Shown here: piece after piece, positions 7,537 to 26,067 of the stretch
Position numbering within the stretch: position 1 is the first letter of the stretch
Layout of the letters: the number at the start of each line of letters is the position of its first letter
Assembly: GCF_028752835.1 (NCBI RefSeq)
Contig: NZ_CP087952.1
Location: 62,001 to 126,000 of the forward strand
DNA: 64,000 nt
Direction of reading: 5' to 3'
Source: Desulfosarcina sp. BuS5
Lineage (GTDB): Bacteria; Desulfobacterota; Desulfobacteria; Desulfobacterales; BuS5
Position numbers and translations under genes: made by a program
The notes under the pieces: generated by a model
The model's database searches: none
Told to the model about the DNA's origin: nothing
Seen by the model: the letters and a program-made list of their open reading frames with translations, nothing else

Positions 7537-7765
7537 TTAGAGCAGCTTAACCAGGGTTGCCACAACAGCGGACTGGGCCAAAAGCATGCCGGCCACCCAT
7601 TTTATAATTCCGGCTTTTGTTTCGGCAATTTCTTTTTGCAAGTCGCCTTTGGTCTCAGCAATATCCTTTTGCAGCATCAGGATATCCTGTTTGGTGGCAA
7701 GGTTGCTGTCAATAATTCTTTTTAAAGTTTTGGCCTGGACTTCAGCCTGTTTTTCGGTAAAGTAT
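7537..7765 (-). pseudogene. DUF1640-like coiled-coil protein, 3' fragment
   Basis: The minus-strand fragment reads FTEKQAEVQAKTLKRIID, then repeated ETKGDLQKEIAETKAG heptads and a C-terminal membrane segment (WVAGMLLAQSAVVATLVKLL). This matches the usual layout of small bacterial CCDC90/DUF1640 proteins: coiled coil plus one C-terminal transmembrane helix. The 5' end is cut off by the IS3-like element starting at 7766; the codons upstream of the break are read from the IS and are not genuine. Confidence 0.6.
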
Positions 7766-8252
7766 AATACTCCCCAAAAACTGGACAGTTGTTTAAGGTG
7801 TAAAATGAGTATATCCTGATCAACAAAAAGGAGGCTCATCAATGGGTAAAATTCGAAAAAATTACAGTGCATCATTCAAAGCTAAAGTAGCGCTTGAAAC
7901 GGTTAAAAAGGAAAAGACGATTTCTCAACTATCTAGTGAATATGGAGTTCATTCAAATCAAATAAATCAATGGCGAAAGCGTCTATTAGAAGAATTGCCC
8001 GATATATTTTCAAAAAAGCGTCAAAAAAAAGAAAAAGACGCTGAAGAATTCCAGGCGGAGCTTTACCAGCAAATCGGCCAATTAAAGGTCGAATTGGACT
8101 GGCTAAAAAAAAAATCTAACCTTCTCAATTGATATAAAGCGTCAATACATTGAGCCGAATCATTCTTTGATACCGGTAATGCGCCAGTGTGATCTTTTGG
8201 GAATAAACAGATCAACCTATTACTATCAATCCTGCAAAGATGAGAGCTATAT
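7766..8252 (+). mobile_element. IS3-like element copy A, truncated
   Basis: The left 487 bp of the same element as 8253-10257 and 20110-22114. It starts AATACTCCCC, carries orfA whole and the first ~28 codons of orfB, and stops abruptly where the inverted copy B begins. Its right end is absent. Confidence 0.9.
7842..8132 (+). CDS. IS3-family OrfA, copy A
   Basis: 96-aa DNA-binding subunit of an IS3-family transposase. Helix-turn-helix region VHSNQINQWRKR near residues 36-47 and a leucine-rich C-terminal coil. Same protein as in the two complete copies. The orfB partner here is truncated at about 8252, so this copy cannot transpose by itself. A run of ten A residues near its end is the likely slippage site (see copy C). 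Confidence 0.9.
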   Translation: MGKIRKNYSASFKAKVALETVKKEKTISQLSSEYGVHSNQINQWRKRLLEELPDIFSKKRQKKEKDAEEFQAELYQQIGQLKVELDWLKKKSNLLN

Positions 8253-8370
8253 AAGGTACTCCCCATTGTCAAGACAAAAAACAAGGTTTTTTAAGGTGCG
8301 CTTTTGAGCTATAAATAATCCTGAAAATTAAAAAAATAATAGTAAATAAAAAAAATATGTTTCTGTTTAT

Positions 8371-8520
8371 CATAAAAATGTTCATAAACAACTTAACTAA
8401 TTGATTTAATAAATAATAATACCATTCTAAAATGTTCATAACTTATTGATAAAATGTTTATAACTTTTTTGTATCTCATTAACATACTGTTAAAATTCAA
8501 TATTAATATGTTTATAACTT
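8371..8520 (-). repeat. Iteron-like repeats inside IS copy B
   Basis: Four imperfect copies of GTTATRAACATWTTA (IS strand), the mirror of those at 21847-21996, in the right-hand non-coding part of the element downstream of the passenger gene. Confidence 0.6.
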
Positions 8521-8629
8521 ATGCCGCACGTTGAATAGGGCATTCACCAAAATATATTATTTTTACAACCTCACATTGATCACCATTGCTGATAAATCTT
8601 GCCTGTTACTTCCTTTAATTTGTCCGATC

Positions 8630-8827
8630 TTAACTATCAATTTCGTAATCATCCGGCAAATTCAAAAAATCTTTTTTCGCCAATTGACTCTCAATTAAAT
8701 AACCAATTTGACCATTCCTCTTGAGCTGTGAAATCATCCACTGTGGTAATCTAATTGTCACAAGCTCTCGTTTCAAATGGTCTGGTTTCTTTTTTCGACC
8801 AGCCCCTGCACGTTTTCCTCCTCTCAT
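8630..8827 (-). CDS. IS passenger: small basic RHH-like protein (copy B)
   Basis: 65 aa from the ATG at 8827, preceded by GGAGG. Starts MRGGKRAGAGRKKKPDHLKR and continues with VTIRLPQWMISQLK, a ribbon-helix-helix-like strand and helix, then a short acidic tail (LPDDYEIDS). No IS3-family transposition protein looks like this. It is identical in copy C, so it travels with the element. Possible roles are repressor of the transposase or an antitoxin-like binding protein; both are guesses. Confidence 0.65.
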   Translation of the reverse strand: MRGGKRAGAGRKKKPDHLKRELVTIRLPQWMISQLKRNGQIGYLIESQLAKKDFLNLPDDYEIDS

Positions 8828-9061
8828 TTTTTTACCTCCAAAACATATAGTATGTTGAATTAAGTGCAACGCTATTCAAAAAATCATCCTAAAAATACGC
8901 TATATATTTGATTAGCGTTATGCAATATTCAAACAAACTCTACTACCAACTGATTATGTGTTGGATAGTACGCTTTTATCTTGTTTGCAGCAGGAAACAT
9001 TTTTTATAATATCAATACGACTTAATGGTATTCTAATTAATTATACAAAGTGGTTCTGAAA

Positions 9062-9856
9062 TTACCCTGGAAAAGTTTTAAAATATATCTCTGCCGGGGT
9101 CTGGTAATCCAAAGATTGATGGAGTCGTTCATTATTGTAAAAGCCAAAATATTCTCCAATGTTTTGAATAGCCTCCCTGACGGTCTCATAATTGTGAAGA
9201 TAAACACGTTCATATTTCACGGTACGCCAAAGGCGCTCTACGAAAATGTTATCCAGAGCACGGCCCCGGCCGTCCATGCTGATCTTCACATCGGCTTTTT
9301 TTAAAACGCCGGTAAAGGCATCACTGGTAAACTGACTGCCTTGATCCGTGTTAAAAATCTTAGGTTTTGCAATTTTTAAGGCACCCTGTAAGGCTTTTAT
9401 ACAAAAATCCTTATCCAATGTGGTTGAAAATTCGTAGCTCAGGACATACCGACTAAACCAGTCTATCACTGCTACAAGATAGATAAAACCTGAATTCAAA
9501 CGGATATAGGTAATATCCGTTGACCACACCTGGTCAACTTGCTCAATGGAAACGCCTCGCAGCAAGTATGGATAAATTTTATGCTCTTTTGATGCTTTGC
9601 TCAAATTTGGTTTTGGATATATAGCTTCAAGTCCCATAAGCCGCATCAAACGTCTTATTCGTTTAGGATTAACAGTGTGCCCTTGTCGCTTTAATACGGC
9701 CGTCATTTTTTCAACACCGTAGAACGGATATCGGGTATATTCTTCGTCTATCAATCGCATGAGAGCCAGGTTATAGCTCTCATCTTTGCAGGATTGATAG
9801 TAATAGGTTGATCTGTTTATTCCCAAAAGATCACACTGGCGCATTACCGGTATCAA
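9062..9856 (-). CDS. IS3-family OrfB (DDE integrase), copy B
   Basis: 264-aa catalytic half of an IS3-family transposase. HTH_21-like N-terminus (QCDLLGINRSTYYYQ), then the rve/DDE core: STDITY (first Asp), NTDQGSQF (second Asp) and FVERLWRTVKYE (Glu). A TTG is the only nearby start; the frame is open upstream to the orfA A10 run, so the active form is probably a frameshifted OrfAB fusion. Identical in copy C. Confidence 0.92.
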   Translation of the reverse strand: MIPVMRQCDLLGINRSTYYYQSCKDESYNLALMRLIDEEYTRYPFYGVEKMTAVLKRQGHTVNPKRIRRLMRLMGLEAIYPKPNLSKASKEHKIYPYLLRGVSIEQVDQVWSTDITYIRLNSGFIYLVAVIDWFSRYVLSYEFSTTLDKDFCIKALQGALKIAKPKIFNTDQGSQFTSDAFTGVLKKADVKISMDGRGRALDNIFVERLWRTVKYERVYLHNYETVREAIQNIGEYFGFYNNERLHQSLDYQTPAEIYFKTFPG

Positions 9857-9890
9857 AGAATGATTCGGCTCAATGTATTGACGCTTTATA

Positions 9891-10181
9891 TCAATTGAGA
9901 AGGTTAGATTTTTTTTTTAGCCAGTCCAATTCGACCTTTAATTGGCCGATTTGTTGGTAAAGCTCCGCCTGGAATTCTTCAGCGTCTTTTTCTTTTTTTT
10001 GACGCTTTTTTGAAAATATATCGGGCAATTCTTCTAATAGACGCTTTCGCCATTGATTTATTTGATTTGAATGAACTCCATATTCACTAGATAGTTGAGA
10101 AATCGTCTTTTCCTTTTTAACCGTTTCAAGCGCTACTTTAGCTTTGAATGATGCACTGTAATTTTTTCGAATTTTACCCAT
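9891..10181 (-). CDS. IS3-family OrfA, copy B
   Basis: 96 aa, same protein as copies A and C: HTH N-terminal domain and a basic, leucine-containing C-terminal coil. Good RBS (AAGGAGG) in front. Ends ~35 bases before the orfB TTG, with the A10 slippage run close to its stop codon. Confidence 0.92.
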   Translation of the reverse strand: MGKIRKNYSASFKAKVALETVKKEKTISQLSSEYGVHSNQINQWRKRLLEELPDIFSKKRQKKEKDAEEFQAELYQQIGQLKVELDWLKKKSNLLN

Positions 10182-10257
10182 TAATGAGCCTCCTTTTTGT
10201 TGATCAGGATATACTCATTTTACACCTTAAACAACTGTCCAGTTTTTGGGGAGTATT

Positions 10258-10819
10258 ATACTTTTAATATGGCCCACTCCATCATTTCTACTGCAAGATC
10301 ATATTTGGTTATGCAGTCACACCGTTTACCGCGTTGCCAAGGCATAAGAGTACCGGTTCCCTTGTGATATACTCGAAAAGCAATGGGGAATTTGATAAGT
10401 GCCCCATCACTATAATAGAGGAAAACAATGCAAGTTGCTTTTAAATTGGTTCCAAGTGCATGATCGAACAATATGAAAACACCATGAATCCATTTACAAA
10501 ATTTGGTATGATGTTTCATGGTATCATCTATGATGAAATAGCCATGAGAAATTTTGTATGTGTTGAGTGTCTGAAGCAAATAGAGCATTTGCAATTCATC
10601 TGTACAAATTTTTGCATTCGAAAAAAGATAGGAAAGTGTGCTCACTGCTTTCTCTTTCAGCAACATACAGCTAATTTCAGTAAGATGTAGACGTGACCCT
10701 AATATTAATGCTGTAGCAACCAAGGTAAAGTCATACATCTGGGCATTCGTCAGTGCGGGTTGAAGAAAAGAGAGACCACTTACAACAAAACCAAGCCGTT
10801 TGGCACATGGAATTTTCAT
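10258..10819 (-). pseudogene. DDE transposase (IS4 superfamily-like), N-terminal half
   Basis: The minus-strand fragment begins MKIPCAKRLGF and contains IIDDTMKHH (a likely first catalytic Asp in a DDT context) and YDLAVEMMEWA, both typical of IS4/IS701-type transposases. It is cut at its 3' side by IS copy B, whose end supplies the stop. The downstream catalytic residues are missing, so it is inactive. The family assignment is by motif resemblance only. Confidence 0.6.
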
Positions 10820-14719: not shown

Positions 14720-14915
14720 TTATTTTTTATTTACTTTCAGCCTGATGCTGTTGAGCCATTTTTTTATCTCTTTAATCAGTATATTATGCAGGAATGGAAT
14801 TAATCATAACATAAGCGATACGATATACCGTTTATTCATAGGCCCGACCATTTTCTGCCATTCCAATATTTAAAGAGGGTATTTATGCTCGGGAACGGTT
14901 ACAAAAATTTTTTAT

Positions 14916-15102
14916 AAAAAATAATAAACATAATTTTGTTCAAATCTTGTCAATAATTGACTCAGTTTGAACAATACTATTTTATATGTTTAATTCTTAA
15001 AGGTTATAATATTTTTTTAATTATAGTTTTAAAATTATTATTATTATTTTTTATAAATAAAATGAAATACTTAAAAAGTTATTATAGTTATTAACAGTCT
15101 TT
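14916..15102 (+). repeat. Direct repeat 1 with nested palindrome
   Basis: About 187 bp, near-identical to 15406-15594. Contains a 39-bp interrupted palindrome (14936-14974): outer arms TTGTTCAAA/TTTGAACAA and inner GTCAAT-A-ATTGAC, followed by an A/T tract. Confidence 0.85.
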
Positions 15103-15162
15103 ATTATATATTATTAATATATAATAAAAATTAATAATGTCCTGTTATTTTTTTTACATGTA

Positions 15163-15290
15163 AAGGGTGTTGCAAAGATTGCTATTATCGGTAGTTAAAA
15201 CAAATAGTTACGCCATAATGAAAAAATGGGGTTTTTCTGGGTTAACTAATTGATTTTATTATCAAAGTTTTTTTACTTTGCAACACCCTT
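15163..15290. mobile_element. MITE-like element, 128 bp
   Basis: Perfect 15-bp terminal inverted repeats AAGGGTGTTGCAAAG / CTTTGCAACACCCTT, flanked on both sides by the 5-bp duplication ATGTA (15158-15162 and 15291-15295). No coding capacity. No matching autonomous element is present in the window. Confidence 0.8.
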
Positions 15291-15405
15291 ATGTAACAGT
15301 ATTAGGGTAAAATTCAGCTAAATTCGTTTGCCCTGGCAATGTACTTAAAAATAAATTGATAGAATTAGAAAAACCGGATAAAATATGGTATAAAAATAAA
15401 TCTTT

Positions 15406-15594
15406 AAAAAAATAATAAGACATAATCTTGTTCAAATCTTGTCAATAATTGACTTAGTTTAAACAATACTATTTTATATGTTTAATTCTTAAAGGTTATA
15501 ATATTTTTTTAATTATAGTTTTAAAATTATTATTATTATTTTTTATAAATAAAATGAAATACTTAAAAAGTTATTATAGTTATTAACAGTCTTT
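15406..15594 (+). repeat. Direct repeat 2 with nested palindrome
   Basis: Second copy of 14916-15102, ending ~100 bases before dnaN. The 39-bp palindrome lies at 15428-15466, with GTCAATAATTGAC intact and the outer right arm changed to TTTAAACAA. Confidence 0.85.
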
Positions 15595-15695
15595 AATAAT
15601 TATTATTTAATATTTCTTAATTAATAATTATAATATTTATAAAAAAAAATTAAATATAATTATATTTCCGATTTATTCGGGTCAGGTTTTTTCTT

Positions 15696-19246
<3,551 letters not shown>

Positions 19247-19259
19247 AAGAAAGGAAGTT

Positions 19260-20111
19260 GTGAAAAAGATCGGATTAGTTGTTAAATCAGATAACAGGGC
19301 TATGGAAAAAGCCGATGAATTTGAAGAATGGCTGATAAAAAAAGATATTAATGTAATAAGAAAAGATATAACTTCACATGCAAATAGTTTTTTTAAAAAA
19401 AAACTATTTGCACCGTCTGATCTTTTTTGTGTTTTTGTTTTGGGAGGGGATGGAACATTTTTAACCGCCGCCCGCTGGATTTCTAATCAGAATATCCCTA
19501 TAATAGGCGTTAAATTTGGAGAAGTCGGTTTTCTTGCAGAACTCTCTGAAAATAACCTTTTCTCTGCGGCTGAAAATATTATAAATGAAAATTTTATAAC
19601 ACAACCAAGGATGCGCCTCCGGGTCCAGGTTATAAGGAATTATCTGGAATATTTTAGTGAAGCTGTTTTAAATGATATTGTTATTAACAAAGGCGCCCTT
19701 GCCAGATTAGCCGATATTAAAACATATATTGATGATTATTATTTAACCACATACAGAGCTGACGGGCTTATAGTTTCAACACCAACAGGTTCAACAGCTT
19801 ATTCTCTTGCAGCAGGCGGGCCTGTAATCCATCCTTCGGTTTCAGGCATACTTATGACCCCTATTTGTCCTTTTACTCTTACTAACAGGCCCCTTATCGT
19901 TCCTGATTCAGTATCTATCAGAATTGAAACAAGCAAAAAATCTTCGGATATAATGTTAACCATAGATGGACAGGAAGGTGTTGAAATAGATAGAGAAGAT
20001 AAAATTATTATAAAAAAATGGCCTTACCCGATCAATATGATAACAATACCAAACCAATTGTATTACAATGTTTTAAAAGCAAAATTACGATGGAGCGGAA
20101 GCAGAGTATAA
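19260..20111 (+). CDS. nadK: NAD kinase
   Basis: 283 aa from the GTG at 19260, which follows AAAGGAAG; the open frame extends upstream into gyrB but has no RBS there. Phosphorylates NAD to NADP. GGDGTFLTA is the diphosphate-binding motif, TPTGSTAYSLAAGGP the second conserved block, and NRPLIVPDS follows. The stop codon is formed at the junction with IS copy C: the pre-insertion sequence reads GTA TGA and the present one GTA TAA, so the protein is unchanged. Part of the AT-rich dnaN-gyrB-nadK set. Confidence 0.92.
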   Translation: MKKIGLVVKSDNRAMEKADEFEEWLIKKDINVIRKDITSHANSFFKKKLFAPSDLFCVFVLGGDGTFLTAARWISNQNIPIIGVKFGEVGFLAELSENNLFSAAENIINENFITQPRMRLRVQVIRNYLEYFSEAVLNDIVINKGALARLADIKTYIDDYYLTTYRADGLIVSTPTGSTAYSLAAGGPVIHPSVSGILMTPICPFTLTNRPLIVPDSVSIRIETSKKSSDIMLTIDGQEGVEIDREDKIIIKKWPYPINMITIPNQLYYNVLKAKLRWSGSRV

Positions 20112-20185
20112 TACTCCCCAAAAACTGGACAGTTGTTTAAGGTGTAAAATGAGTATATCCTGATCAACAAAAAGGAGGCTCATTA

Positions 20186-20476
20186 ATGGGTAAAATTCGA
20201 AAAAATTACAGTGCATCATTCAAAGCTAAAGTAGCGCTTGAAACGGTTAAAAAGGAAAAGACGATTTCTCAACTATCTAGTGAATATGGAGTTCATTCAA
20301 ATCAAATAAATCAATGGCGAAAGCGTCTATTAGAAGAATTGCCCGATATATTTTCAAAAAAGCGTCAAAAAAAAGAAAAAGACGCTGAAGAATTCCAGGC
20401 GGAGCTTTACCAACAAATCGGCCAATTAAAGGTCGAATTGGACTGGCTAAAAAAAAAATCTAACCTTCTCAATTGA
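20186..20476 (+). CDS. IS3-family OrfA, copy C
   Basis: 96-aa HTH subunit (MGKIRKNYSASFKAKVALET..., HTH at VHSNQINQWRKR). RBS AAGGAGG eleven bases upstream. Ten consecutive A residues at 20449-20458 precede its stop. Reading on after skipping one base there gives an uninterrupted path into OrfB (NLTFSIDIKRQYIEPNHSL), which is the expected OrfAB join, so translational or transcriptional slippage is probable. Confidence 0.93.
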   Translation: MGKIRKNYSASFKAKVALETVKKEKTISQLSSEYGVHSNQINQWRKRLLEELPDIFSKKRQKKEKDAEEFQAELYQQIGQLKVELDWLKKKSNLLN

Positions 20477-20510
20477 TATAAAGCGTCAATACATTGAGCC
20501 GAATCATTCT

Positions 20511-21305
20511 TTGATACCGGTAATGCGCCAGTGTGATCTTTTGGGAATAAACAGATCAACCTATTACTATCAATCCTGCAAAGATGAGAGCTATAACCTG
20601 GCTCTCATGCGATTGATAGACGAAGAATATACCCGATATCCGTTCTACGGTGTTGAAAAAATGACGGCCGTATTAAAGCGACAAGGGCACACTGTTAATC
20701 CTAAACGAATAAGACGTTTGATGCGGCTTATGGGACTTGAAGCTATATATCCAAAACCAAATTTGAGCAAAGCATCAAAAGAGCATAAAATTTATCCATA
20801 CTTGCTGCGAGGCGTTTCCATTGAGCAAGTTGACCAGGTGTGGTCAACGGATATTACCTATATCCGTTTGAATTCAGGTTTTATCTATCTTGTAGCAGTG
20901 ATAGACTGGTTTAGTCGGTATGTCCTGAGCTACGAATTTTCAACCACATTGGATAAGGATTTTTGTATAAAAGCCTTACAGGGTGCCTTAAAAATTGCAA
21001 AACCTAAGATTTTTAACACGGATCAAGGCAGTCAGTTTACCAGTGATGCCTTTACCGGCGTTTTAAAAAAAGCCGATGTGAAGATCAGCATGGACGGCCG
21101 GGGCCGTGCTCTGGATAACATTTTCGTAGAGCGCCTTTGGCGTACCGTGAAATATGAACGTGTTTATCTTCACAATTATGAGACCGTCAGGGAGGCTATT
21201 CAAAACATTGGAGAATATTTTGGCTTTTACAATAATGAACGACTCCATCAATCTTTGGATTACCAGACCCCGGCAGAGATATATTTTAAAACTTTTCCAG
21301 GGTAA
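20511..21305 (+). CDS. IS3-family OrfB (DDE integrase), copy C
   Basis: 264 aa counted from a TTG. DDE catalytic residues in VWSTDITYIR, FNTDQGSQFTSD and NIFVERLWRTVKYE. Relative to orfA the frame is +1 (equivalently -2); the -1 frame used by most IS3 elements meets TAA at once after the A-run. Cuts and joins DNA as the OrfAB fusion. Confidence 0.92.
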   Translation: MIPVMRQCDLLGINRSTYYYQSCKDESYNLALMRLIDEEYTRYPFYGVEKMTAVLKRQGHTVNPKRIRRLMRLMGLEAIYPKPNLSKASKEHKIYPYLLRGVSIEQVDQVWSTDITYIRLNSGFIYLVAVIDWFSRYVLSYEFSTTLDKDFCIKALQGALKIAKPKIFNTDQGSQFTSDAFTGVLKKADVKISMDGRGRALDNIFVERLWRTVKYERVYLHNYETVREAIQNIGEYFGFYNNERLHQSLDYQTPAEIYFKTFPG

Positions 21306-21539
21306 TTTCAGAACCACTTTGTATAATTAATTAGAATACCATTAAGTCGTATTGATATTATAAAAAATGTTTCCTGCTGCAAACAAGATAAAAGCGTACT
21401 ATCCAACACATAATCAGTTGGTAGTAGAGTTTGTTTGAATATTGCATAACGCTAATCAAATATATAGCGTATTTTTAGGATGATTTTTTGAATAGCGTTG
21501 CACTTAATTCAACATACTATATGTTTTGGAGGTAAAAAA

Positions 21540-21737
21540 ATGAGAGGAGGAAAACGTGCAGGGGCTGGTCGAAAAAAGAAACCAGACCATTTGAAACGAG
21601 AGCTTGTGACAATTAGATTACCACAGTGGATGATTTCACAGCTCAAGAGGAATGGTCAAATTGGTTATTTAATTGAGAGTCAATTGGCGAAAAAAGATTT
21701 TTTGAATTTGCCGGATGATTACGAAATTGATAGTTAA
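21540..21737 (+). CDS. IS passenger: small basic RHH-like protein (copy C)
   Basis: 65 aa. The ATG at 21540 follows GGAGG with 6-base spacing; an upstream in-frame ATG at 21498 has no RBS. Lys/Arg-rich start, then TIRLPQWMISQLK (ribbon-helix-helix-like). It sits between orfB and the iteron-like repeats, a layout reminiscent of a repressor beside its binding sites. Function unknown. Confidence 0.65.
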   Translation: MRGGKRAGAGRKKKPDHLKRELVTIRLPQWMISQLKRNGQIGYLIESQLAKKDFLNLPDDYEIDS

Positions 21738-21846
21738 GATCGGACAAATTAAAGGAAGTAACAGGCAAGATTTATCAGCAATGGTGATCAATGTGAGGTT
21801 GTAAAAATAATATATTTTGGTGAATGCCCTATTCAACGTGCGGCAT

Positions 21847-21996
21847 AAGTTATAAACATATTAATATTGAATTTTAACAGTATGTTAATGAGATACAAAA
21901 AAGTTATAAACATTTTATCAATAAGTTATGAACATTTTAGAATGGTATTATTATTTATTAAATCAATTAGTTAAGTTGTTTATGAACATTTTTATG
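21847..21996 (+). repeat. Iteron-like repeats inside IS copy C
   Basis: AAGTTATAAACATATTA (21847), AAGTTATAAACATTTTA (21901), AAGTTATGAACATTTTA (21923) and GTTTATGAACATTTTTA (21978). Four similar ~17-bp words in 150 bases of very AT-rich DNA downstream of the RHH-like passenger. Confidence 0.65.
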
Positions 21997-22886
21997 ATAA
22001 ACAGAAACATATTTTTTTTATTTACTATTATTTTTTTAATTTTCAGGATTATTTATAGCTCAAAAGCGCACCTTAAAAAACCTTGTTTTTTGTCTTGACA
22101 ATGGGGAGTACCTTAGAGTATGAAAAATATTGAAAAATAAACCTCAAAATTAAGTTTGATATAACGTACTAATCACGTGGGGCGGCTTTTTGCTATCCCG
22201 TGCATTAGATTGTTATATTCTTAAGATCAGAATCGATTTTCAACTATTTTATTTTTGATCAGGGTAAAGAACTTTGTATTCCACCAGATAATGCTCTTTT
22301 AAACAATCAGGACAAATGCCGTGACTGACGTCAGCTTGTGAATGCTTGTAAATATAAACATCAACCTGCTCCCAGTATCCTTTATCATCCCTGACTTTCT
22401 TGCAAAATGAACAAATGGGAAGTATGCCCCTTAAGGTTTTTACCTCATCGAGAGCCCGTTGGAGATTCAGAATGGTTTTATAGCGCTCCGCTTCTGCTGC
22501 GGTGCGTTCTCTATTTTCGTTTTCCAGTTGTTGGTTTGTTTGAGCCTGCTTTTTTATCCTTTGTTCAATCTCGGCAGTGTATAGAATTTTTCTTAGCATG
22601 AAAAATGCCAAAAGAGTCGTCAATAGCAACGATCCAAATAAGACAATCTATCCTTGCCACATCTTCCGAGATTGATAATAGAAGTCCGACGGCCTAAGTG
22701 AAATTTTCCACTGGCGTTCTGCGAACTCAATATTTTTGCTCCAGAAAATGTCTTTTTGAATTTCCTCCGCTGATATCGGATTAGATTATCTATTATTTTT
22801 GACATCTGTGAAGGCCGGTGGTAAAGAATACGATTTTCTTTATCGGCAGACAAACATATCGTAAAGCGTTAAACAAATCCCTTCTC

Positions 22887-25148
22887 GTGCCAAGATAAAT
22901 CCGAATCGTTGGGATAAGACACAAGGTCTTTGAAACTCGATATTGTTACCAAGTGGGTGCTCGGGAAACGGTTTGTTTCCTTCATCTCTGCAGGGCTTGC
23001 TCTGGCATTGATGTTAAGATAGTCCCACCTGACTAAAGACTAACCAGCAGGTCAGTAGCGAAGTCCACAGGTAAACCCGGTAACGGGAGTCTGGAGCTGG
23101 ACGGAGCAAGATTGCAGGCTCTGTATTGAGCCCCGAAAAATGTATGGTTGTGGTCATTGTGATAATCCTGCTTGCAGGAAAAAGCCGACGCTTTGGAGAC
23201 AGCGGAAGGCAGCAGTCCTGAATATGCTAAGGCAAGTATTCAGGACACCACCGGGGTCTTAGACCAGGGCATGTACTCAAAGGGGTAGCTCGGGAACTTG
23301 GGAGACCCGGATGTTTCCTTGGGTAAAAAGAACGGTAACAGGAAATCCAGCGCAAGCGAAATCCCGGCGTTGCATAGGAATGTCCCGCCTTGCAACGAGT
23401 CTGCCATTGGCAGAAACACAAACATTAAAAGATGGGCGATACAAGGTATCAGGGGAGGATAGCGAAGAGCGAACGAACCTGAGATAAACATTCGGAAGTC
23501 TTAGCAGATCATAGTACCGATGATTAAGAATTGAACTATCTTGATCGGAAAGGTGGGGAAGTGATGCCCAAGCGACCCACTGCAGGGAAGGTGAAGCAGG
23601 GTATAACGTTTTTTTGGCAGGAATTATGGGAGATACACAGATGTCACAAACCATATCAACAAAAAGCCGAGAAATTGCAAGAACGGTCGCTTGCAATTCC
23701 AGACCGATAGAATGGGGACAACCACCGGTGTTAACAGGTGGGTCATCCCTTATCAAAATCGAGCTGCTTGCTCAAAGTAATCCTGAACTGGTATTTACAT
23801 CAGTAGTCCATCGGATAGACTTTGATTTACTGAAACAATCCTTTCGTAAAATTCGGAAAAGCAAATCTGCAGGAGTGGACAAGGTTACGGCAAAGGAGTA
23901 TGCCGAAAATCTTGATCAAAACCTCTATAATCTGTATGAACGACTGCGGAGAGGACAGTACGTTGCGTCTCCTGTAAAGCGTATCTGGATAGACAAGGAA
24001 GGAGGGAAAAAGCGTCCAATTGGCATACCTGTACTTGAGGATAAAATTGTCCAGAAAGCAGCAGCAGCCATATTGAATGTCATATTTGACAGGAATTTTT
24101 ACAATTTTTCCCATGCATTCAGAAAAGGTCGGAGCCAACACATGGCAATCAAAGATTTACGTGAGCAATGCTTGAAGCAGAATATCAGCTGGATAGTAAG
24201 CGCAGATATTACAGGACTATTTGACAATATTAATCACGAGTTACTTAAAGACATGATACGTCGGAGAGTAAGTGACGGCGGAATGATTCGCCTGATAGGG
24301 AAGTGGTTGAATGCAGGCGTAATGGAGGAAGGCAACCTGACGTACTCTGAAACGGGCACTCCACAGGGAGGAGTAATTTCCCCTGTGCTCAGTAATATCT
24401 TTCTTCATTATGTTTTAGATGACTGGTACGTGAAAGAAGTGATCCCCCGGATGAAAGGGAGATGCTCCATCATACGCTGGGCGGATGATTTCATCCTCGG
24501 GTTCGAGTATGAAAAAGACGCATTGCGTGTCATGGATGTATTACCCAGGCGGTTCGAACAGTTCGAGCTGTCACTTCACCCGGAAAAGACAAAACTGATT
24601 CGATTTTCCAAACGCATTAGCGGAAAGGGAAACGGGACGTTTGATTTTTTAGGGTTTACATTTTACTGGTCAAAATCATTAAAAGGGTACATGGTAATAA
24701 AGAAAAAGACGGCAAGAAAGCGTTCAAGCCGTTTTATGAAGAGAATATGGATATGGTGCAAGGATAACCGTCATAAGCCAATGGCCGAGCAGTATGAGAT
24801 TCTTTGCAGTAAACTGCGAGGTTTTTACCAGTACTTTGGAGTAATAAGTAACTACAAAGTGCTGGAAGTTGTGTTTGAATATACTGAGAAAGCATGGCGT
24901 CGATGGTTAAGCCGAAGAAGTCACAAGGGCGAAGTAATGTTCGAGGACTTGCGCACAACATACCCACTGCCATTACCCAGAATAGTCCATAATATTTGAT
25001 GCCGTAAGGGCTGCAAAGTTATACGCCAAACGGGGTGTCGCCTGTTTGGTTGATAATCCGGTAAAAAGGATTTGAACCGAGGAACCGTATGAGGGAAATC
25101 TTCACGTACGGGTCTGTAGGGGGGGCGTCGGGTAACCGATGCTCCTAC
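22887..25148 (+). mobile_element. Group II intron, antisense in the CHASE gene
   Basis: About 2.26 kb on the + strand. The 5' end is probably GTGCC at 22887 and the 3' end CTAC near 25148, deduced from where the interrupted CHASE reading resumes; boundaries are good to a few bases. Domain V is recognisable at about 25084-25112 (CCGTATGAGG...CACGTACGG), followed by a domain VI-like stem. Because it lies opposite to its host gene, splicing cannot restore that gene. Confidence 0.85.
23614..24999 (+). CDS. ltrA: Group II intron reverse transcriptase/maturase
   Basis: Up to 461 aa; the ATG at 23629 (MGDTQMSQT) is an alternative start. RT blocks: KSKSAGVDKVT (RT1), KRPIGIPVLEDKIVQKA (RT2), FSHAFRKGRSQH (RT3), SADITGLFDNINH (RT4), GTPQGGVISPVLSNIFLHYV (RT5), RWADDFILGF (RT6; WADD instead of YADD). 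Then the maturase (X) domain LRGFYQYFGV...AWRRWLSRRS. No HNH endonuclease domain follows, so mobility would depend on nicked or replicating DNA. Confidence 0.93.
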   Translation: MAGIMGDTQMSQTISTKSREIARTVACNSRPIEWGQPPVLTGGSSLIKIELLAQSNPELVFTSVVHRIDFDLLKQSFRKIRKSKSAGVDKVTAKEYAENLDQNLYNLYERLRRGQYVASPVKRIWIDKEGGKKRPIGIPVLEDKIVQKAAAAILNVIFDRNFYNFSHAFRKGRSQHMAIKDLREQCLKQNISWIVSADITGLFDNINHELLKDMIRRRVSDGGMIRLIGKWLNAGVMEEGNLTYSETGTPQGGVISPVLSNIFLHYVLDDWYVKEVIPRMKGRCSIIRWADDFILGFEYEKDALRVMDVLPRRFEQFELSLHPEKTKLIRFSKRISGKGNGTFDFLGFTFYWSKSLKGYMVIKKKTARKRSSRFMKRIWIWCKDNRHKPMAEQYEILCSKLRGFYQYFGVISNYKVLEVVFEYTEKAWRRWLSRRSHKGEVMFEDLRTTYPLPLPRIVHNI

Positions 25149-26067
25149 CTGGAATCGGAAAAGCCTCTCAGCGCGGTTTCTATTGCCTGGCCAATGCGAA
25201 GGACTTCTACAGCAAATCTTTTTCGGCGTTCTTCCGCTGTATTCAAGGGAACATCTTGATGATAGATTGGTAGGAGGAGCAGAATTCCGAACTGATTGCC
25301 GGTTTCCTGTACCAAGGTAATTCTGCCGGTGGTAGATAGCTTTCCCGTATTGAATCCTTTTGTGATGGCCTTTAGCCGTGTGCTATTGGAAGCGATGTCA
25401 AAACCTAAGGCAGGCCTATTGGTTTCCAAGGAATGTATATAATAGACGATGACATATTCCTCTCGGCGTGCAGCTCTAACCAACTCATTTGTTTCTGAAC
25501 GTTCCGTGAATTCAAAATCATCGAACCCATCTTTCCTTGCCGCGGATTCATAAAGGGTACGTTCCTCGTCCTTCACAAGAGGATTCCAAGAAAATACCTG
25601 GATCCCTGGATAGCGGGGCAGAACGCTTTTCACAAGGCCGGTGTACTTCTGACGGGTCACGAGTGATGAATTATCAAAAAAAAATCACCAAGGAACAGGA
25701 GTACCCCGACATAGGCATTTAAGCTGCTTTCTACGGCGTTCGTGTACGTTTTTGCCCAAGATTCGAATTCGCTGCGCTGATTCGTCTGTTCCCAACTGTG
25801 AATGAGCAAAAACATGACGAATGATACCGTGACCCCTAAAACAAGCAGAAATATTATGGGGAAATAGCGTCGCATTGGAATCAAAACACGATGTTTTATC
25901 TCATTTTCTTTTTGCATCTTGACCCTGCATTGTCGCTATGGCGTTAGGGTGGCTTCTATTTCCAGTTTTCACGATAGCTAATGTTCTATTTAAATAGTTT
26001 GATTTTTCATCTTCGATTTTACATATCAACTCATGATGAAAAATACAATAAAGAGGAGGCTTAAATT

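What the first reader, a model, noticed from the sequence alone, without database searches (positions are those of the whole stretch)
14916..15594. Duplicated nested palindromes in an AT-rich island before dnaN-gyrB-nadK
A 187-bp direct repeat is present twice, each with a 39-bp interrupted palindrome (TTGTTCAAA/TTTGAACAA around GTCAAT-A-ATTGAC). No DnaA box is seen and dnaA is absent, yet the region abuts clamp and gyrase genes, and composition from ~14.9 to 20.1 kb is far more AT-rich than the flanks. It could be an unusual replication origin, an autoregulatory site for gyrase/clamp, or a transferred replication module.
Basis: partly seen in the sequence, partly recalled or inferred. Interest (0 to 1): 0.65.

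Follow-up and report, generated by a model that had tools for sequence, protein, structure and literature searches.

The report
Duplicated, displaced chromosome origin core
The twin AT-rich repeats in front of the DNA clamp gene carry the binding-site core that appears to mark the chromosome's replication start in related bacteria, but in this genome that core is doubled and sits far from the other landmarks of the start region.

Summary
The repeat is real: 14897-15120 and 15387-15613, 94% identical, with no other copy in the genome; a 129-bp mobile-type repeat lies between. As a hairpin the palindrome is near chance for such AT-rich DNA; its meaning comes from comparison.

In relatives of the order (Desulfobacterales by named hits) dnaN is not linked to dnaA; it usually follows an RdgC-like pair, often has parS within 13-41 kb, and in five of seven genomes checked lies within 6 kb of the local GC-skew minimum. 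DnaA-box-like TTATNAACA is enriched there about 17-fold. An inverted box pair with an 8-bp spacer is conserved; all nine exact copies in 22 genomes are on the dnaN contig. Each window repeat carries a drifted version of the pair and an exact copy of a second conserved element.

So the repeat is a duplicated core of the order's dnaN-linked origin (strong). "No DnaA box" holds only for the E. coli consensus. Here the block is cut off from the rdgC pair and parS, and skew does not switch. Either the origin moved with dnaN, or the core is a relic or DnaA-controlled promoter; sequence cannot decide. Horizontal transfer is not supported.

The parts
14897..15120 (+). origin-core repeat, copy 1
   Evidence: unique to this locus in the genome
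15387..15613 (+). origin-core repeat, copy 2, directly upstream of dnaN
14936..14974 (.). 39-bp interrupted palindrome of copy 1; contains inverted box pair TGTCAATAA (14948-14956) - N8 - GTTTGAACA (14965-14973)
   Evidence: sequence; spacing matches the pair conserved in relatives
15428..15466 (.). palindrome of copy 2; inverted box pair TGTCAATAA (15440-15448) - N8 - GTTTAAACA (15457-15465)
14948..14956 (-). DnaA-box-like TTATTGACA
   Evidence: TTATNGACA in relatives' dnaN upstream: 8 observed vs 0.7 in shuffles
15078..15096 (+). second conserved element GTTRTTATA-N-TTATNAACA, copy 1, with exact box TTATTAACA at 15088
   Evidence: 8 of 33 relatives at up to 2 mismatches vs shuffle mean 0.07
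15440..15448 (-). DnaA-box-like TTATTGACA, copy 2
15570..15588 (+). second conserved element, copy 2, with exact box TTATTAACA at 15580
15162..15290 (.). 129-bp MITE-like repeat with inverted ends AAGGGTGTTGCAAAG lying between the two copies; at least 21 further copies (one partial) in the genome
   Evidence: 40 of 92 candidates scored; ends
15696..16814 (+). dnaN, DNA polymerase III beta clamp
   Evidence: Pfam PF00712, PF02767, PF02768
16814..19246 (+). gyrB
   Evidence: Pfam PF00204, PF00986 and others
19236..20111 (+). nadK, NAD kinase; its end abuts an insertion sequence
   Evidence: Pfam PF01513, PF20143; IS begins at about 20105

Best explanation
The repeat unit is the DnaA-binding core of the chromosome origin used by this order, an origin that lies near dnaN and not beside dnaA. 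DnaA would bind the inverted pair of TTATNRACA boxes and the TTATTAACA box near dnaN, the 17% GC DNA around them would serve as the unwinding region, and the same sites would let DnaA control dnaN-gyrB transcription. In this genome the core has been duplicated, a 129-bp mobile-type repeat sits between the copies, and the dnaN-gyrB-nadK block has become separated from the rdgC pair and from parS. Shown: conservation of the core's elements at dnaN in relatives, its duplication here, and the separation from rdgC and parS here. Supported by skew and parS: that the dnaN region is the origin in relatives. Inferred: DnaA binding, unwinding, and that it still fires as the origin in this strain.
For: In 31 relatives' dnaN upstream regions (rows not independent) TTATNAACA occurs 34 times vs 2.0 in shuffles, TTATNGACA 8 vs 0.7, E. 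coli-type TTATNCACA 0 vs 0.8. The inverted pair with 8-bp spacer occurs 12 times in 10 of 31 loci at up to one mismatch; 100 shuffle sets gave 0 for this arrangement and at most 1 for any arrangement. Over 22 whole genomes all 9 exact copies of the pair, from 7 genomes, are on the dnaN contig, 0.3-21 kb from dnaN (dnaN places). Exact parS is on the dnaN contig, 13-41 kb away, in 8 of the 10 relatives that have an exact parS. Local cumulative GC-skew minima lie 0.3, 0.6 and 0.9 kb from the pair in G018, G016, G015 and about 5 kb in G026. dnaA is on another contig in 17 of 18 relatives with both genes located, and about 1.3 Mb away in the 18th. TTWTNAACA is also enriched upstream of dnaA in 21 loci of the order, 26 vs 4.6, as expected for a DnaA box. 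Window: four exact boxes where 0.30 are expected, second element exact in both copies. The pair pattern has two other hits in this genome, at one mismatch: one is inside a histidine-kinase-like ORF (named by eye); the other (423442) was not read.
Against: In this genome skew is mostly positive on both sides of dnaN; a two-arc fit to 40 samples puts the origin at 3.40-3.46 Mb (R2 0.33; 3.64-3.70 Mb 0.32, parS 0.29, dnaA 0.25, dnaN 0.14), though 40 permutations of the data average 0.13 and reach 0.33. parS is about 0.6 Mb from dnaN (if the contig is a circle) and the rdgC pair is at 1.956 Mb. The right-hand box of the window pair has two mismatches in both copies. 21 of 31 relatives lack the pair within 560 bp of dnaN at one mismatch; in some it lies 1.4-2.3 kb upstream, in others none was found. 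In 8 of the 26 relatives with the rdgC-like gene before dnaN the gap is under 100 bp, so no core fits there. Skew minima in G011, G033 and G013 are weak or 6-35 kb from dnaN.
Confidence: 0.6

Rival explanations
1. Relic or promoter only: the core came from the order's origin, but in this strain replication starts elsewhere (near parS, 3.4-3.7 Mb) and the repeats now only let DnaA regulate dnaN-gyrB-nadK.
For: Skew and parS point to 3.4-3.7 Mb; one box of each pair has drifted.
Against: In 3.37-3.70 Mb, read throughout, the only cluster of three or more TTATNRACA in 500 bp is one at 3.6037 Mb with nearly the spacing of the set inside the window's IS copies. Boxes TTATTGACA and TTATTAACA are intact in both window copies. 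About 70% of the genome was not read for clusters.
Confidence: 0.27
2. The palindrome is the operator of an unrelated transcription factor (for example a TetR- or Rex-like repressor) controlling clamp and gyrase, with no replication role.
For: Inverted symmetry, and promoter-like hexamers overlap it (14947-14975), though promoter hits are at chance level (13 vs 11.6).
Against: The left element is an exact lineage-type DnaA box, the spacer is the one conserved at dnaN loci, and exact pairs lie within 1 kb of skew minima in three relatives. Self-complementarity alone is near chance.
Confidence: 0.08
3. Replication module acquired from a plasmid, phage or distant donor.
For: GC far below the flanks; IS copies on both sides.
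Against: dnaN's best relatives are of the same order at up to 63% identity; 14 of 31 relatives have under 30% GC in the last 400 bp before dnaN, the rest 30-57%; no match in 72,556 plasmids; the right IS has its own 5-bp direct repeat, read by eye, so the two IS copies do not look like a shared-target composite transposon. The phage collection was not searched.
Confidence: 0.03
4. Assembly artefact: a misjoin at an IS creates the apparent displacement.
For: Repeat-rich genome; identical 2,011-bp inverted IS copies flank the block; same-genus drafts lack the region.
Against: Two contigs for 4.18 Mb suggest long reads (inference); the repeat copies differ at several positions, so the duplication is not one copy repeated by error.
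Confidence: 0.06

Closest known systems
dnaN-linked oriC of cyanobacteria (Synechococcus), with lineage-specific DnaA box TTTTCCACA
   Same: Origin next to dnaN and not dnaA; box consensus differs from E. coli (PMC2275245, passages read)
   Different: Here the box is TTATNRACA, the neighbours in relatives are an RdgC-like pair and gyrB, and in this genome the core is duplicated and displaced
[quoted passage not shown]
   Same: dnaN and gyrB next to the origin; parS near it in relatives (that parS lies near such origins elsewhere is recalled)
   Different: dnaA is elsewhere in the genome; in the window dnaN is followed by gyrB and nadK
Epsilonproteobacterial oriC (ruvC-dnaA-oriC2-dnaN) with changed DnaA recognition helix
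   Same: Lineage-specific DnaA boxes and changes in helix 5 of DnaA domain IV (PMC5043019, passages read)
   Different: There the box has T at position 5; here position 6 is A or G, and residue 433 is Tyr

Membership tests
bacterial chromosomal origin (oriC) | cluster of DnaA boxes above chance | tested here: met
   4 exact TTATNRACA in 793 bp, shuffle mean 0.30, 0 of 1000 reach 4; consensus taken from relatives, no exact E. coli box
bacterial chromosomal origin (oriC) | AT-rich unwinding region beside the boxes | tested here: met
   17% GC over 14903-15695; unwinding itself not tested
bacterial chromosomal origin (oriC) | position at the GC-skew minimum | tested here: not met
   in this genome skew is mostly positive on both sides; in relatives G016, G015, G018 the local minimum is within 1 kb of the pair
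bacterial chromosomal origin (oriC) | parS nearby | tested here: not met
   about 0.6 Mb away here; 13-41 kb in 8 of 10 relatives with exact parS
bacterial chromosomal origin (oriC) | DnaA binding and replication start shown by experiment | not testable with these tools
   needs footprinting and marker-frequency sequencing
dnaN-linked origin core of this order (defined here) | inverted box pair with 8-bp spacer | tested here: inconclusive
   present with 2 mismatches, spacer exact
dnaN-linked origin core of this order (defined here) | GTTRTTATA-N-TTATNAACA upstream of dnaN | tested here: met
   exact in both copies
dnaN-linked origin core of this order (defined here) | RdgC-like pair upstream | tested here: not met
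   the pair is at 1.956 Mb next to an rnd-like gene (named by eye); its second gene stands before dnaN in 26 of 31 relatives with enough sequence
composite transposon | shared target-site repeat outside the two IS copies | tested here: not met
   right IS has its own repeat GAGTA, read by eye; left IS sits against a truncated IS copy

The most novel reading that the evidence does not exclude
A chromosome origin caught shortly after moving: the active oriC travelled with dnaN-gyrB-nadK about 0.6 Mb away from parS and the old skew switch, and its DnaA-binding core was duplicated, so GC skew and parS still mark the old start. It would make the tie between oriC, parS and strand bias testable in one natural strain.
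Probability: 0.35. Interest if true: 0.72.

Novelty: new variant of a known kind. Interest (0 to 1): 0.5.

Why it matters
It points, from sequence, to where an order of bacteria starts its chromosome and to what its DnaA boxes look like, which tools set to the E. coli box would miss. DnaA in the order also carries Tyr at a DNA-reading position that papers call highly conserved Asp (Asp in 23 of 36 readable outgroups here). If the displaced origin works, it shows that oriC can part from parS in nature, and how long GC skew remembers the old start.

Tried and rejected
Canonical DnaA boxes: no exact one in 14-16 kb. An alternative origin at the pair hit 3463405: inside a histidine-kinase-like ORF, rejected; the hit at 423442 was not read. 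The rdgC locus as left-behind origin: no TTATNRACA box within 1955000-1958500, and the rdgC-like gene overlaps the start of an rnd-like ORF. Box clusters with about 54/22/54 spacing lie inside both window IS copies and recur at further sites, so they were not taken as origins. Composite transposon: rejected. Same-genus genomes G001, G002 and same-family G003: no dnaN found; with DNA of this locus G001 gave four copies of the mobile repeat and one match of about 30 bp, G002 one of 26 bp, G003 none.

Co-evolution of Tyr433 with A at box position 6: I expected outgroups to have C. They do not clearly: upstream of dnaA in 20 outgroup genomes TTWTNAACA is 17 vs 3.5 in shuffles and TTWTNCACA 5 vs 1.8. 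The A6 box is thus wider than the Tyr433 change, and I drop the one-to-one link.

Errors corrected: one search read 15 minus-strand loci in the wrong direction and is replaced. In one search the second element was typed with one base too many (2 of 31, shuffles up to 4) and is replaced. My note says 10 exact pair sites; the table gives 9. The first fit of skew had no constraint on arc length and is replaced. A paper search on DnaA residues in three-letter form gave nothing. 16S position (one match, 2.91 Mb, minus) fits either origin.

Full report
Setting. The window is contig positions 62001-126000 of a 4,066,517-bp contig in a two-contig assembly of 4.18 Mb.

Observation. The repeat is 14897-15120 and 15387-15613 at 93.9% identity; a whole-genome search finds no copy outside this locus. 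The left two thirds of the palindrome, searched with up to three mismatches, has only these sites and one three-mismatch hit elsewhere. Between the copies lies a 129-bp element, 15162-15290, with inverted ends and at least 21 further copies in the genome, one of them partial (40 of 92 candidates were scored). The region is 17% GC. Taken as a hairpin, the palindrome is near chance.

What the sequence contains. Relatives supply the key. I oriented the dnaN upstream regions of the relatives; 31 had more than 600 bp. Upstream of dnaN, TTATNAACA appears 34 times against 2.0 in dinucleotide shuffles; TTATNGACA 8 against 0.7; the E. coli form TTATNCACA 0 against 0.8. A pair of such boxes, inverted and with an 8-bp spacer, occurs 12 times in 10 of 31 loci at up to one mismatch; no other arrangement occurs more than 3 times, and 100 shuffle sets give none of this one and at most 1 of any. 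Eight of the 12 lie about 190-200 bp before the dnaN start. The window palindrome has this layout: TGTCAATAA-N8-GTTTGAACA in copy 1 and GTTTAAACA in copy 2, two mismatches each, all in the right-hand box. A second element, GTTRTTATA-N-TTATNAACA, is found in 8 of 33 relatives at up to two mismatches against a shuffle mean of 0.07, and is exact in both window copies. The rows are related to each other, and both patterns were chosen after seeing these sequences, so the counts are not independent; the whole-genome search below is the better test.

Why these look like origin sequences. First, position: over 22 whole genomes (G000 and 21 relatives, three of them without a dnaN match) the pair pattern at zero mismatches has 9 sites in 7 genomes, all on the contig that carries dnaN, from 0.3 to 21 kb from it; of 25 one-mismatch sites, 6 lie within 2 kb of dnaN and the others do not; the reversed control pattern has 7 sites at up to one mismatch; 8 of 22 genomes have no site at all (dnaN places). 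Second, parS: of 14 genomes searched, 11 have an exact parS; in 8 of the 10 relatives among them it is 13-41 kb from dnaN on the same contig, in G028 and G029 it is on another contig; G013, G033 and G007 have only two-mismatch forms, on the dnaN contig at 21-154 kb, but the reversed control also gave hits at up to two mismatches in six genomes, so those forms weigh little. Third, GC skew: in stretches of 40-160 kb around dnaN, the cumulative minimum is 0.3 kb (G018), 0.6 kb (G016) and 0.9 kb (G015) from the pair, about 5 kb in G026, about 6 kb from dnaN in G033 (weak skew) and about 22 kb in G011 (weak), and in G013 the switch is about 35 kb from dnaN, at the contig ends. These are local minima in seven genomes; whole-genome skew of relatives was not computed. 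Fourth, dnaA is not nearby: of 18 relatives with both genes placed, 17 have them on different contigs and the one-contig genome G013 has them about 1.3 Mb apart. Fifth, TTWTNAACA is enriched upstream of dnaA in 21 loci of the order, G000 included, 26 against 4.6, as expected if it is the box that DnaA binds.

Limits of the rule. The gene before dnaN is the second of an RdgC-like pair (the first passes Pfam's RdgC cut-off narrowly, 25.1 against 25 bits; the second has no Pfam match). It precedes dnaN in 26 of 31 relatives, but in 8 of these the gap is under 100 bp, so the core cannot lie there; in G009, G015 and G004, three of the eight, a pair lies 1.4-2.3 kb before dnaN instead. The last 400 bp before dnaN are below 30% GC in 14 of 31 relatives, not in all.

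The initiator. The DnaA of G000 and of 22 relatives of the order (21, G072) has Tyr at the position of E. coli Asp433 in the recognition helix (RYHAT, once RYHGT). Of 86 outgroup genomes of the phylum I fetched 39, chosen mostly from the best matches; 36 were readable in frame and none has Tyr there (Asp 23, Asn 7, His 2, Thr 2, Ser 1, Gln 1). Papers describe this Asp as highly conserved and as a base-contacting residue (PMC8235120, PMC5043019, PMC7561715; passages only); my outgroups show it is looser in this phylum. The E. coli numbering rests on the motif and the papers, not on a structure computed here. The box change at position 6 is not confined to the order, so I do not claim a one-to-one match.

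This genome. Here the landmarks have come apart. The RdgC-like pair is at 1.956 Mb, overlapping an rnd-like ORF. parS and genes that stand beside it in G016 are at 3.537-3.541 Mb, in reverse order. dnaA is at 3.2525 Mb. Skew is mostly positive for about 100 kb to the left of dnaN and to its right up to about 112 kb of the contig; a two-arc fit on 40 samples prefers 3.40-3.46 Mb (R2 0.33, next 3.64-3.70 Mb at 0.32) against 0.14 for dnaN, but permuted data average 0.13 and reach 0.33, so skew is a weak guide. The block is flanked by identical, inverted 2,011-bp IS copies (8252-10262, 20105-22115), the right one at the end of nadK with its own 5-bp repeat. I take this as a genome reshuffled by IS elements, not as a composite transposon. 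The mechanism of the move is not shown.

Mechanism. Best reading: DnaA binds the inverted pair and the dnaN-proximal box, opens the AT-rich DNA, and also controls dnaN-gyrB. The duplication would double the binding sites; whether it raises initiation, titrates DnaA or is neutral is unknown. Whether this is the strain's working origin I put at about even odds or slightly above; that the repeat is homologous to the order's origin core I hold at about 0.85.

What is known. Origins near dnaN without dnaA, and lineage-specific boxes, are known (Ori-Finder paper PMC2275245, passages; review PMC4285127, passages). I saw no paper on the origin of this order in the listings of eight searches of the open-access library; two searches listed only 20 of 58 and 15 of 281 papers. 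The main texts of PMC5109826 and PMC11887813 hold none of the terms dnaA, dnaN, origin of replication or replication origin. DoriC, which may list predicted origins of such genomes, could not be consulted.

Noticed in passing
window 15162-15290: 129-bp MITE-like element with inverted ends, at least 21 further copies in the genome, also in the same-genus genome G001.
   Followed up: partly
window 8252-10262 and 20105-22115: Identical inverted IS3-type elements (rve transposase; family by recall). Inside each, outside the transposase ORF, are four TTATRAACA motifs spaced 54/22/54, a set seen at further sites in the sampled genome: a possible DnaA sponge carried by an IS, or coincidence.
   Followed up: no
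window 7759-10264: A truncated copy of the same IS lies head-to-head with the left IS, both ending in the same flank: possible footprint of an IS-made rearrangement.
   Followed up: no
window 23019-25154: Group II intron (Rfam) with a reverse-transcriptase-like ORF at 23614-24999 (named by eye).
   Followed up: no
G000 contig 1 at 1973843-1974383 (L159): Six TTATTAACA motifs exactly 108 bp apart, apparently a tandem repeat.
   Followed up: no
dnaA genes of the order (L090, L164-L184, L198): Tyr at the place of Asp433 in DnaA's recognition helix in 23 of 23 DnaA sequences of the order and in none of 36 readable outgroups.
   Followed up: partly
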